A stretch of DNA of 64,000 nucleotides from Microbacterium sp. Nx66 (GTDB lineage: Bacteria > Actinomycetota > Actinomycetes > Actinomycetales > Microbacteriaceae), in assembly GCF_904066215.1 (NCBI RefSeq), contig NZ_LR880474.1, positions 3,348,001 through 3,412,000 of the forward strand. The letters are read 5' to 3'. Made by a program: the position numbers and the translations under genes. The notes under the pieces were generated by a model, which was not told the DNA's origin, ran no database searches, and saw nothing but the letters and a program-made list of their open reading frames with translations. Shown in pieces: positions 3,019-39,421 of the stretch; positions within the stretch are counted from its first letter, which is position 1, and each line of letters starts with the position of its first letter.

Positions 3019-3077
3019 TTCGAATCGCCCGCTGTGCTGCAAATCCGGCCGGTGTGGCGCAATGTGGGCGATTCGAA
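3019..3077. repeat. 59-bp palindromic intergenic element, copy A1
   Basis: Perfect 12-bp terminal arms TTCGAATCGCCC (3019-3030) and GGGCGATTCGAA (3066-3077) flank a less paired centre. It fills the gap between two convergent genes: 5 nt after the monooxygenase stop and 6 nt before the stop of the small minus-strand gene. Three more copies of exactly the same length occur at 6245, 36308 and 39363. The position suggests a bidirectional 3'-end structure. There is no T-tract of a classical intrinsic terminator. Confidence 0.85.
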
Positions 3078-3083
3078 GGCCGA

Positions 3084-3260
3084 TCAGTCGGCGTCGCGGG
3101 TGAAGAGGCTCCGCAGCACGAGGAAGACCACCACGGCGACGACCGCGACGATGGCGAGCTTCGCGATGAACCAGAGCACCGAGAACAGCGCGCTGACGAT
3201 CCACCACGCGATCACGACGGCGAGGATGACGCCGAGGACGGTCCAGATGTTCTTGGTCAT
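3084..3260 (-). CDS. Small membrane protein, 58 aa
   Basis: A 58-residue ORF starting MTKNIWTVLGVILAVVIAWW and ending RSLFTRDAD. It is almost entirely two back-to-back hydrophobic helices (about residues 7-30 and 32-50) with a charged C-terminus. The start has a GGAGG Shine-Dalgarno directly upstream on the minus strand. It lies 9 nt downstream of the DUF4406-like gene on the same strand, so the two are likely cotranscribed. Function unknown. The composition and ribosome site make it a credible gene rather than chance. Confidence 0.65.
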   Translation of the reverse strand: MTKNIWTVLGVILAVVIAWWIVSALFSVLWFIAKLAIVAVVAVVVFLVLRSLFTRDAD

Positions 3261-3269
3261 GCCTCCAGC

Positions 3270-3635
3270 CTACGGAGTCGCGGCGGCCGGGATCTCCTCC
3301 AGCGACCGGTAGACAGGCAGTCCGCGCTCGTGGGCGATGGCGACATCCTGGTCCGCGCCCGTCGAAGCCCCCGGAAGGCGCAGCACCGCATCGCAGTGCT
3401 GGAGGAGGCGGTGCGCGGTCTCGTACATCACGTCGCCGGTCTCCACTTCGGCCGCGTCGAGGGTGCGGAGGATGGGCAGAGCGGCCCATTCCCCGATCAT
3501 CGGCACGTGGCCGAGGCGGAAGATCGGACCGGACGCCTCCTCCAGACGCGCGAGATTGCGGGCGATCAGGGCGGCGTCGCCGTTGGTGCCGGAACGGTAG
3601 GGGCCGGCGATCAGGATCAGGAGTGGCTTCATCAT
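3270..3635 (-). CDS. DUF4406-like / nucleoside deoxyribosyltransferase-fold protein
   Basis: About 121 aa beginning MMKPLLILIAGPYRSGT. The AGPYRSG loop followed by a helix NLARLEE, and the later CDAVLRLPGASTGADQDVAIAHERGLPVY segment, match the small Rossmann-like proteins grouped as DUF4406 and related to nucleoside 2-deoxyribosyltransferases. Their reactions are mostly undetermined. I chose the ATG at 3635 because a TACAGT box (3648-3643 on the minus strand) sits 7 nt upstream, the usual geometry of a leaderless actinobacterial transcript. An in-frame ATG at 3659 would add eight residues. Divergent from the DeoR gene. Confidence 0.65.
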   Translation of the reverse strand: MMKPLLILIAGPYRSGTNGDAALIARNLARLEEASGPIFRLGHVPMIGEWAALPILRTLDAAEVETGDVMYETAHRLLQHCDAVLRLPGASTGADQDVAIAHERGLPVYRSLEEIPAAATP

Positions 3636-3689
3636 GGAGATGACTGTAGTCTGAATCATGCATAAACGTGCAGCTTCGTGAGGAAACGT

Positions 3690-4439
3690 ATGCTCGCTGC
3701 TCAGCGCAAAGACCACCTGCTCGCCGTACTCGCCCGCGAGGGACGGGTCGTGGCGAAGGCTGCGGCCGATGACCTCGGAGTATCGGAAGACGCCATCCGC
3801 CGCGACCTCCGCGAGCTCGCCGAGGAGGGCAGGCTCCAGCGCGTGTACGGCGGCGCGCTGCCCATCGCCGCGGCCGATCGCCCGGTGCGGGAGCGCCACG
3901 ACCTGGCGACCGAGAGCAAGGAGCGGGTCGCCCGCCAGGCGGTCACGACCATCCGCCCCGGATCGACGATCGTGCTGGATGCCGGAACCACCACGCTCGC
4001 GATGGCGCGACTGCTGCCCTCCGGCACCGGCGTCACGGTCATCACCCCGAGTCCCGCCGTCGCCCTGGCCGTCGCCGAGCACTCGGATGCGCGCGTGATC
4101 ATGATCGGCGGCGAGCTCGCCCGGCACTCTCTCGTCGCCGGAGGGGGACTCGCGATGGAGGCGATCCAGCACCTCGCTGCCGACGTGTTCTTCGTCGGGG
4201 TCACGGGTGTCGACCCGCGTCACGGCCTCACGACGGGCGAGCTCGACGATGCCGTCACCAAGCGGGCGATCGCCTCCCGATGTGCCGCGACGATCGTGCT
4301 CGCGAGCGACGAGAAGATCGGCGCCGCCTCGCGCTACCCGGTGCTGCCGTTCGAGGCGGTCGCCGCGGTCATCACCGACCCCCTCGACGAGAATCCGCTG
4401 ATCCCCGAGGTCCTGGCGCAGATCCCGGCGGGGGCGTGA
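3690..4439 (+). CDS. DeoR/GlpR-family transcriptional regulator
   Basis: 249 aa with the classic two-part layout. The N-terminal helix-turn-helix (about residues 5-57) reads RKDHLLAVLAREGRV, then AADDLGVSEDAIRRDLREL and the family signature RVYGGA. The C-terminal DeoR sensor, related to phosphosugar isomerases, follows with LDAGTTTLAMARLLP, VITPSPAVALAVAEH and MIGGEL. Such regulators usually repress sugar catabolic genes and respond to phosphorylated sugars. The ATG at 3690 follows GAGGAAACGT; a GTG at 3678 is in frame but less likely. No sugar operon is adjacent, so the target is unclear. The 3' end overlaps the convergent MerR gene by 68 bp. Confidence 0.9.
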   Translation: MLAAQRKDHLLAVLAREGRVVAKAAADDLGVSEDAIRRDLRELAEEGRLQRVYGGALPIAAADRPVRERHDLATESKERVARQAVTTIRPGSTIVLDAGTTTLAMARLLPSGTGVTVITPSPAVALAVAEHSDARVIMIGGELARHSLVAGGGLAMEAIQHLAADVFFVGVTGVDPRHGLTTGELDDAVTKRAIASRCAATIVLASDEKIGAASRYPVLPFEAVAAVITDPLDENPLIPEVLAQIPAGA

Positions 4440-37114: not shown

Positions 37115-37240
37115 GTGCACCTCGGATCGGACTCGGCGTCGTGGCCGGCCTGCCGCGGCACGGCTCCCGAGCCTGCGGAAGGGCATCGGCGTTGATCAAC
37201 ACCGCGCCATCGCTCCCCTACGAACCGCAGGCATGGCGTC

Positions 37241-37630
37241 TCAGGCCAGGCCGAGGCCCGCCAGCTCGGCGGGGTCGAGCATCCGCGACCGGATGAGGAA
37301 CCGCATCCCCGTGGGGCCCTCGACGCTGAACCCGGCGCCGCGTCCCGGCACGACATCGATGGTGAGGTGCGTGAACTTCCAGTACTCGAACTGCGAGGCC
37401 GACATGTAGACCTCGACCGGATCGTCGAGCCCGACGTCGAGGGTGCCGAGGAGCACGTCGCCGGGACCGGTGAGGAACATCCCCACGGGGTAGCACATGG
37501 GGGCGGAGCCGTCGCAGCAGCCGCCGGACTGGTGGAACATGAGCGGCCCGTGCTGCGCGGTGAGTTCGCGGACGAGCGCGGCGGCGGGGTCGGTCACCGC
37601 GACGCGGGCGGGCGTGGTCTGACTGACCAT
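37241..37630 (-). CDS. DUF779 protein
   Basis: 129 aa. HQSGGCCDGSAPMCYPVG with paired cysteines, SQFEYWKFTHLTIDVVPGRG and the GMRFLIRSRML ending are DUF779 hallmarks. The family is almost always next to an aldehyde dehydrogenase of the ExaC type, as here (70 nt downstream of it), and has been suggested to assist that enzyme. The exact role is unknown. Confidence 0.9.
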   Translation of the reverse strand: MVSQTTPARVAVTDPAAALVRELTAQHGPLMFHQSGGCCDGSAPMCYPVGMFLTGPGDVLLGTLDVGLDDPVEVYMSASQFEYWKFTHLTIDVVPGRGAGFSVEGPTGMRFLIRSRMLDPAELAGLGLA

Positions 37631-37700
37631 GGGACTCCTTCCGGAATGCCGAGTGCCGGACGGCGCGGCGAGCGCCGCCCGTCACCCGGGCTCGGGCGGA

Positions 37701-39251
37701 TCAGAAGAAGCCCATCGGGCCCTCCGCGTACGAGACGAGGAGGTTCTTCGTCTGCTGGTAGTGGTCGAGCATCATCTTGTGGTTCTCGCGGCCCACCCCC
37801 GACTGCTTGTACCCGCCGAACGCGGCATGCGCCGGGTACTGGTGGTAGGTGTTCGTCCACACGCGACCAGCCTCGATCGCCCGGCCCGCGCGGTACGCGG
37901 TGTCGCCGCTGCGACTCCATACACCGGCCCCCAGCCCGTACAGGGTGTCGTTCGCGATCGAGATCGCGTCGTCGAAGTCGTCGAACGAGGTGACCGAGAG
38001 CACAGGACCGAAGATCTCCTCCTGGAAGATCCGCATGTCGTTCGTCCCCTCGAACACGGTCGGCTGCACGTAGAAGCCCTCGCTGAGGTCGCCGCCGAGG
38101 TCGGCGCGCTCGCCTCCCGTGAGCAGCCGGGCCCCGCCCTGCTTGCCGATGTCGATGTAGCTGAGGATCTTCTCCAGCTGATCGTTCGAGGCCTGCGCGC
38201 CGATCATCGTCGCAGGGTCGAGCGGATTGCCCTGCACGACCTTCTCCACACGCTCGAGGCCGTCGGCGAGGAAGCCGTCGTAGATCGAGCGCTGGATGAG
38301 GGCGCGTGACGGGCAGGTGCAGACCTCGCCCTGGTTGAGCGCGAACATCGTGAAGCCTTCGAGCGCCTTGTCGTAGAACGGGTCGCTCGTGGAGCGGGCG
38401 ACGTCCTCGAAGAAGACGTTCGGGCTCTTGCCGCCGAGCTCCAGGGTGACCGGGATGAGGTTCTGCGAGGCGTACTGCATGATGAGGCGGCCGGTCGTGG
38501 TCTCGCCGGTGAAGGCGACCTTGCGGATGCGCTTGTGCTGCGCGAGCGGCGCGCCGGCCTCGATCCCGAAGCCGTTCACGATGTTCACGACCCCGGCCGG
38601 CAGCAGGTCGCCGATGATGTCGAACAGGAACAGGATCGACGCGGGGGTCTGCTCCGCGGGCTTGATGACGATGCAGTTGCCCGCGGCGAGCGCCGGCGCC
38701 AGCTTCCACACGGCCATGAGGATCGGGAAGTTCCAGGGGATGATCTGCCCGACCACGCCGAGCGGCTCATGGAAGTGGTACGCGACGGTGTTCTCGTCGA
38801 GCTGGCTGATGCCGCCCTCCTGCGCGCGGAGCACCCCCGCGAAGTAGCGGAAGTGGTCGATCGCGAGCGGGATGTCGGCGGCGAGGGTCTCCCGCACGGG
38901 CTTGCCGTTCTCCCACGTCTCCGCGACCGCGATCTCCTCGAGGTGCTGCTCCATCCGGTCGGCGATGCGGTTCAGGATCACGGAGCGCTCCGCGGGGCTG
39001 GTCTTGCCCCAGGCGCTGAAGGCCTTCCAGGCGACGTCGACGGCGCGGTCGATGTCCTCGACGGTGCCGCGGCCGACCTCGGTGAAGGGCTTGCCGTTGA
39101 CGGGACTGATGTTCTCGAAGTATTGGCCCTTGGCGGGCTCGACGAACTCGCCGCCGATGTAGTGACCGTAGCGGGGCCGGTAGTTCGCGACCGCTCCGGG
39201 CTGTCCGGGGGCGGCGTAGGCGAGGGACACGTCTTCTTCGACGATGGTCAT
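37701..39251 (-). CDS. NAD-dependent aldehyde dehydrogenase (ExaC/acetaldehyde type)
   Basis: 516 aa, complete. Oxyanion N174 in PWNF, cofactor loop FTGETTTG (247-254), general base E271 in LELGGKSPN and nucleophile C311 in [11 protein letters not shown] are all present. The ending AEGPMGFF and the adjacent DUF779 gene place it with acetaldehyde dehydrogenases of ethanol and amine catabolism. Cotranscription with DUF779 is likely. The GAF regulator gene lies upstream on the same strand, separated by a 59-bp palindromic element. Confidence 0.92.
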
Positions 39252-39362
39252 GGGGTCTCCTTCGACGGGGGCGCCGCGGCGTCGATGCCGCGGTGTTCCC
39301 TCGACGCTAGGCCGCTCCCCGTTGCACTCCCGATGCGCAACGTTGCAGCCGGTTGCGCCCCG

Positions 39363-39421
39363 TTCGAATCGCTCACCTGGCTACATCCGCGGCCGAAATG
39401 GCACCAATCGGGCGATTCGAA
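39363..39421. repeat. 59-bp palindromic intergenic element, copy A4
   Basis: Arms TTCGAATCGCTCACCTGG (39363-39380) and CCAATCGGGCGATTCGAA (39404-39421). It directly abuts the stop codon (39422-39424) of the minus-strand GAF regulator and is about 110 nt upstream of the aldehyde dehydrogenase start. The right arm is identical to that of copy A3. Confidence 0.9.

What the first reader, a model, noticed from the sequence alone, without database searches (positions are those of the whole stretch)
3019..39421. Family of 59-bp palindromic elements placed right after stop codons
Four copies (3019, 6245, 36308, 39363) are each exactly 59 bp with arms TTCGAATCGC.../...GCGATTCGAA and a semi-conserved GG-C-GNNATGG centre. 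All sit 0-7 nt past a stop codon of at least one neighbouring gene. Copies differ in the arms but keep pairing through compensatory or G-U changes, which argues for an RNA-level role such as 3'-end protection, attenuation or termination without a U-tract. Exact length conservation and the intergenic site also fit a REP/MITE-like mobile hairpin. I did not recognise it as a described family.
Basis: partly seen in the sequence, partly recalled or inferred. Interest (0 to 1): 0.75.

Follow-up and report, generated by a model that had tools for sequence, protein, structure and literature searches.

The report
Palindromes paired with a homing-like nuclease
Short DNA palindromes of nearly fixed length that sit just behind bacterial genes appear to belong to an undescribed selfish system built around a DNA-cutting enzyme related to homing endonucleases, whose gene is bracketed by the same palindromes in relatives of this bacterium.

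Summary
In detail: four exact 59-bp quasi-palindromes 0-7 nt behind stop codons. This Microbacterium genome has 37 copies; 109 of 366 Microbacterium genomes match. RNA-level selection is not supported: on the sense strand G.U mismatches are no commoner than A.C (47 v 52), while the core mutates like the flank but keeps its length. A REP/RAYT system is excluded: the RAYT family is in 1 of 366 genomes, without elements.

The unexpected result is a partner gene. In relatives, and with other arm 'dialects' in other Microbacteriaceae, Arthrobacter and Tsukamurella, such palindromes flank a DUF559 gene: an AbiEi-like part plus a Vsr/EDxHD nuclease fold whose best match is homing endonuclease I-Bth0305I, reported to dimerise on a target of nearly 60 bp (PMC3943268). 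Palindromes lie on both sides in 17 of 30 best-scoring loci against 1 of 189 control genes, in matching dialect. The window's genome keeps only a deleted remnant of the gene; 77 of 109 element-bearing genomes also lack a high-scoring copy.

Best reading: a REP/RAYT-like selfish system with an unrelated, homing-type nuclease. Linkage is shown; recognition, cleavage and mobility are inferred.

The parts
3019..3077 (.). 59-bp palindrome, between a luciferase-like monooxygenase gene (stop at 3013) and a predicted convergent gene (stop at 3084)
   Evidence: orthologous copy in G172, no element in G002, G029, G071, G288 and G363
6245..6303 (.). 59-bp palindrome, 7 nt behind the Imm5-like gene (stop at 6237), before a response-regulator gene (6357)
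   Evidence: occupied in G172, G071 and G318, absent with 11-41 nt left in G166, G232, G233 and G363
36308..36366 (.). 59-bp palindrome, 2 nt behind the minus-strand gene 36369-37202 (no Pfam family)
39363..39421 (.). 59-bp palindrome directly behind the stop of the minus-strand GAF-domain gene 39422-40744
3019..3028 (.). outer conserved half-site TTCGAATCGC of the first copy (mirror half at 3068-3077; likewise 6245-6254/6294-6303, 36308-36317/36357-36366, 39363-39372/39412-39421)
   Evidence: outer arms diverge 2.9% between five species, core 11.7%
3038..3058 (.). core of free sequence and held length (positions 20-40) of the first copy; likewise in the other copies

Best explanation
The elements are the dispersed, non-autonomous copies of a selfish palindrome system whose acting gene encodes an AbiEi-like part joined to a Vsr/EDxHD-type (DUF559) nuclease. 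SHOWN by sequence: in relatives the nuclease gene is bracketed by palindromes of about 57-64 bp with matching arms; gene lineages have their own arm dialects; solo copies of the same dialect are scattered in the same genomes, mostly just behind stop codons; in Microbacterium the core sequence is free but the total length is held; elements and gene co-occur; the window's genome keeps the elements but only a deleted remnant of the gene. INFERRED: the nuclease binds the palindrome in double-stranded DNA as a dimer (hence two conserved half-sites at a fixed spacing), as reported for I-Bth0305I on a target of nearly 60 bp; cleavage plus host repair copies or moves the palindrome, and sometimes the gene between two palindromes; copies survive where they do least harm, behind stop codons, and may secondarily act as bidirectional terminators.
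Against: No movement was seen: 16 of 17 own loci tested are occupied in all four close relatives, and the 17th is fused with its neighbour in G231. 77 of 109 element-bearing genomes lack a gene of 440 bits or more, among them 36 of 65 with 8 or more strand matches, and some have no profile match at all; elements therefore outlive the gene. Solo copies match their own genome's gene-flanking copies best in 3 of 5 testable genomes only. Arm decay after gene loss is not significant. Foldseek's best E-value is 0.024. Low-scoring DUF559 homologues mostly lack palindromes (14 of 20). In Arthrobacter ERGS1:01 the two flanking palindromes differ in length (50 and about 63 nt), so the length lock is not universal. 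No binding or cleavage data exist.
Confidence: 0.72

Rival explanations
1. Host DNA sites: the AbiEi-nuclease protein, or another protein, binds the palindromes for a host purpose (insulation or a transcription road-block between convergent genes, organisation of the origin region); the gene's own copies would be autoregulatory.
For: Double-stranded symmetry and held length; conserved positions across species; clustering toward the origin in 6 of 6 genomes with located dnaA (27 of 37 copies within the nearest quarter in the own genome; for G172, G212 and G231 only best-scoring copies were seen, for G034 6 of 8).
Against: Patchy presence (109 of 366); empty sites in relatives; the gene is flanked downstream as well as upstream; elements persist where the gene is a remnant.
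Confidence: 0.15
2. A family of bidirectional RNA terminators or 3'-end protecting hairpins.
For: Behind stop codons, convergent genes frequent (59 of 185); strong predicted hairpins; double changes in the inner arms exceed independence (32 v 14.1).
Against: No G.U excess on the sense strand; outer ten bases fixed in sequence; core length fixed; no run of T behind the window copies; dialects tied to a nuclease gene.
Confidence: 0.07
3. An ordinary MITE family of a conventional transposase not yet seen; the nuclease is a passenger.
For: Dispersed, palindromic, extragenic, patchy.
Against: No target-site duplication; no RAYT in any of the 109 element-bearing genomes; the same gene family sits between palindromes in several families of Actinomycetota, each with its own dialect. 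Other transposase families were not searched.
Confidence: 0.04

Closest known systems
REP / REPIN elements with RAYT transposases (REPtrons; PMC3116915 abstract, PMC3733652 passages)
   Same: Short palindromes dispersed outside genes, inverted half-sites, a nuclease gene flanked by the same palindrome, lineage-specific sequence types, orphan copies without the gene
   Different: Enzyme unrelated (Vsr/EDxHD fold, not a HUH tyrosine transposase); no GTAG or CGTC foot; about 59 bp of held length; found here in Actinomycetota
EDxHD (Vsr-like) homing endonuclease I-Bth0305I (PMC3943268 passages)
   Different: Here full palindromes lie on both sides of the gene and in solo copies, instead of a target split by the gene; an AbiEi-like part precedes the nuclease
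DUF559 / Vsr-like proteins such as Caulobacter VsrA (PMC12907096 passages)
   Same: DUF559 domain, Vsr-like fold
   Different: The passages seen mention no palindrome association; VsrA is proposed to act in mismatch repair
AbiEi antitoxin (PDB 6y8q)
   Different: Fused to a nuclease domain; whether an AbiEii toxin gene lies nearby was not tested

Membership tests
REP/REPIN-RAYT | RAYT (Y1_Tnp, PF01797) in the genome | tested here: not met
   1 of 366 genus genomes, G355, not an element bearer
REP/REPIN-RAYT | GTAG (or CGTC) foot at one end | tested here: not met
   both ends read TTCGAA in the 23 aligned copies
REP/REPIN-RAYT | dispersed extragenic palindromes plus a nuclease gene flanked by them | tested here: met
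   with another enzyme
IS / MITE | target-site duplication | tested here: not met
   185 copies, no excess over shuffles for 1-8 nt
IS / MITE | DDE or other classical transposase bounded by the arms | not tested
   only PF01797 was searched
EDxHD homing endonuclease | Vsr/EDxHD catalytic fold | tested here: met
EDxHD homing endonuclease | gene interrupts its own target site | tested here: not met
   complete palindromes on both sides
EDxHD homing endonuclease | cleavage and homing activity | not testable with these tools
   needs protein
Intrinsic terminator | U-tract behind the hairpin | tested here: not met
   none behind the four window copies in sense orientation, by inspection
Intrinsic terminator | RNA-type covariation (G.U over A.C on the sense strand) | tested here: not met
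   47 v 52, p 0.69
Integron attC (59-base element) | RYYYAAC / GTTRRRY core sites (recalled) | tested here: not met
   ends are TTCGAA in the copies, by inspection; no integrase search
Rfam families | match at gathering score | tested here: not met
   0 matches in the window

The most novel reading that the evidence does not exclude
A new class of selfish DNA in Actinomycetota: a homing-type (AbiEi + Vsr/EDxHD, DUF559) nuclease that recognises, and spreads in the genome, a palindrome of about 60 bp aimed at gene 3' ends, each nuclease lineage with its own palindrome dialect; it would give a function to many orphan 'DUF559 / AbiEi' genes of Actinomycetota.
Probability: 0.6. Interest if true: 0.92.

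Novelty: categorically new. Interest (0 to 1): 0.85.

Why it matters
It would be a second, independent solution to the REP/RAYT problem (short palindromes dispersed by a linked nuclease), with an enzyme of the homing-endonuclease/Vsr fold, and would explain why genes annotated 'DUF559 domain-containing' in Actinomycetota carry palindromes at their ends. Dialects and genes come in matched sets, two of them in one Tsukamurella genome, so specificity can be tested directly with short oligonucleotides. It also gives a handle on why such elements sit just behind stop codons and near the replication origin.

Tried and rejected
RNA function as the primary role: not supported by the G.U/A.C test and the length data. 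RAYT partner: rejected. Target-site duplications: none. Palindrome reaching into the flanks: it stops at TTCGAA, apart from avoidance of A (7 of 185) just outside. Phage carriage: 0 exact-arm matches in IMG/VR; one weak protein match in the phage collection, not followed. Decay of arms after gene loss: not significant (12 of 114 v 4 of 63 private changes, p 0.42). Recurrent neighbour genes: generic families. NCBIfam and PADLOC: only weak matches. Pfam DUF559 is below its cut-off for two of four nuclease proteins and above it for two. Sequence search of the PDB: one weak match, 3hrl, E 0.0045.

Limits. Gene calls come from a home-made codon scorer; of 185 copies its 28 'divergent', 13 unclassified and 4 'inside' cases were not resolved one by one, starts are unreliable, and 35 of the 37 own copies entered. 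Counts per genome are capped at 15 strand matches. The 440-bit limit and the three score groups were set, and the 37 lower loci include four of 440 bits or more. The 29 of 30 includes L337, whose palindrome is of another sequence type, and counts L310 as a miss although a second finder saw both sides. The element indel rate is only about 2-fold below that of the mostly coding flank 21-60 nt away. BLAST place counts may count one palindrome on both strands. Fisher tests ignore relatedness.
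Full report
What is there. The four copies are exact 59-bp quasi-palindromes 0-7 nt behind stop codons. The window (G000:C1 3348001-3412000 of 3422870 bases) ends about 11 kb before dnaA, which is at the start of the contig. The organism is a Microbacterium: exact-arm matches in named genomes are mostly Microbacterium, and relative G218 has a contig of the same length, 951796 bases, as one of Microbacterium sp. LCT-H2. Rfam has no match. 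The genome holds 22 exact-arm copies, all 59 bp although 50-65 bp was allowed, and 37 by covariance model. In the genus 109 of 366 genomes have a match. In 299 genomes drawn from the family 18 do, three of them Microbacterium, the others with one to seven weak matches.

Anatomy. Positions 1-10 and 50-59 are nearly invariant, the inner arms vary with partial pairing, and the core (20-40) is free. Of 185 distinct copies examined 172 are 59 bp; the six G034 copies among them are all 58 bp. Across orthologous copies in five close species (15 of 17 loci used) pairwise divergence is 2.9% in the outer arms, 10.4% in the inner arms, 11.7% in the core, 8.5% in the adjoining 20 nt and 4.7% further out; indels per site are about 14-fold rarer than in the adjoining 20 nt and 2-fold rarer than further out. 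Free sequence at held length is what a double-stranded DNA site with two half-sites would show; a hairpin loop would be expected to tolerate indels. Double changes in the inner arms exceed independence (32 v 14.1), so pairing has some weight, but oriented to the sense strand of 75 tandem copies G.U and A.C mismatches are equal (47 v 52).

Placement. By a home-made gene caller 59 of 185 copies lie between convergent and 81 between tandem genes; the nearest stop is at most 22 nt away in 55 of 59 and 63 of 81; 28 were called divergent. Copies cluster toward the origin in 6 of 6 genomes with a located dnaA (only best-scoring copies for G172, G212 and G231, 6 of 8 for G034). Sites are old: 16 of 17 own loci tested are occupied in G172, G212, G218 and G231, and in G231 the 17th is fused with its neighbour. 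More distant species have sites without an element at the first two window copies.

The partner. Loci with two copies about 1.1 kb apart held the same gene in six Microbacterium loci. Weak model matches in other genera led to the same gene: G655 (L211) and G561 (L206) have palindromes of other arm sequence on both sides, G438 (L207) on one side. A profile of the six proteins (A3) was run over 366 Microbacterium genomes. In the 30 best loci palindromes flank the gene on at least one side in 29 and on both in 17; in 37 lower loci 30 and 15; in 20 low loci 6 and 3; in 189 control genes 19 and 1. Arms on the two sides agree (21.3 of 24) far better than between loci (12.8; 0 of 300 shuffles). Dialects include TTCGAATCGC, TTCGAGTCGCATG, TTCAAAGAGCGC, TTCATAGCGCGC, TTCGAGGAGCG, CTCCCGTGGCA, CGCTCAGGTATGAG and TCCGGTCGCA. 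In G021, 19 solo copies match the gene-flanking dialect (20.5 of 22) and not that of other species (at most 16.3); over five testable genomes the own gene-flanking copies are the best match in three. Genomes with a gene of 440 bits or more have elements in 32 of 34 cases, others in 77 of 332.

Beyond the family. In Arthrobacter sp. ERGS1:01 (L400), Arthrobacter sp. StoSoilB13 (L401) and Tsukamurella tyrosinosolvens (L404 and L405, two genes with two dialects) the gene is flanked on both sides; L402 shows one weak palindrome, L403 none and L406 none that is convincing: 4 of 7 loci. In L400 the two palindromes differ in length. Solo copies occur in the same genomes. In Tsukamurella 14 of 14 fetched solos of both dialects overlap a stop codon or lie at most 12 nt from it (8 of 8 non-gene records and 6 of 7 were fetched). 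Placement at stop codons is therefore seen in two distant genera with unrelated arm sequences.

The window's genome. G172, G212 and G218 carry the gene with TTCGAATCGC-type palindromes. At the same locus the window's genome keeps two aligned pieces of the gene (about 141 and 381 bp), part of the downstream palindrome and none of the upstream one. Its best profile match elsewhere is weaker (2.2e-59). Its elements are thus orphans, as REPs can be. This also shows that elements persist without the gene, which leaves room for a host role.

Shown and inferred. Shown: linkage, dialect pairing, co-occurrence, length lock in Microbacterium, placement, predicted fold. Inferred: dimer binding, cleavage, copying. 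Not shown: any movement. In print: searches for Microbacterium palindromic repeats, palindromes and convergent genes, DUF559 with palindromic and mobile (one unrelated), DUF559 with inverted repeats, REP with actinobacteria and nuclease, DUF559 alone (14 listed, none about repeats by title) and REPtron with endonuclease (ten of 6606 listed) showed no description. The library lacks most subscription journals. PMC3733652 and PMC3116915 (passages; abstract and outline) describe REPs, REPINs and RAYTs; the term DUF559 does not occur in PMC3733652.

Noticed in passing
G000:C1:3109962-3110020 (L167): A copy with a different outer arm (..GAAGAGCGCACATGG..), resembling the TTCAAAGAGCGC dialect of G070 and G333: a second dialect may be present in the window's genome.
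   Followed up: no
G231 locus orthologous to G000:C1 351514 and 352771: Two neighbouring elements and the gene between them are replaced by one hybrid element, as if elements recombined and deleted the gene.
   Followed up: partly
L181 2060-2080, L072, L104, L111, L145 beside the upstream element: A TGTGGATAAC / TGTGGACAAC-like stretch, resembling a DnaA box (recalled consensus), lies next to the nuclease gene's upstream palindrome in five species.
   Followed up: no
L064 6299-6940, L040, L106: Gastranaerophilales MAGs carry 60-62 bp palindromes with the same ten outer bases but an AT-rich core, three of them in tandem; probably unrelated.
   Followed up: no
L404 1276-2335 and L405 1330-2344: One Tsukamurella genome has two nuclease genes with two palindrome dialects; its 'plasmid' records look like chromosome fragments (purB, gatA and cobN are on them).
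   Followed up: partly
window 8360-8452 and 53707-53793: Two inverted repeats share the motif GGGCACAGCTTCGGA at distant places of the window.
   Followed up: no
window 10582-10636 and 41409-41456: Two other hairpins (21 and 18 bp arms) unlike the 59-bp family.
   Followed up: no
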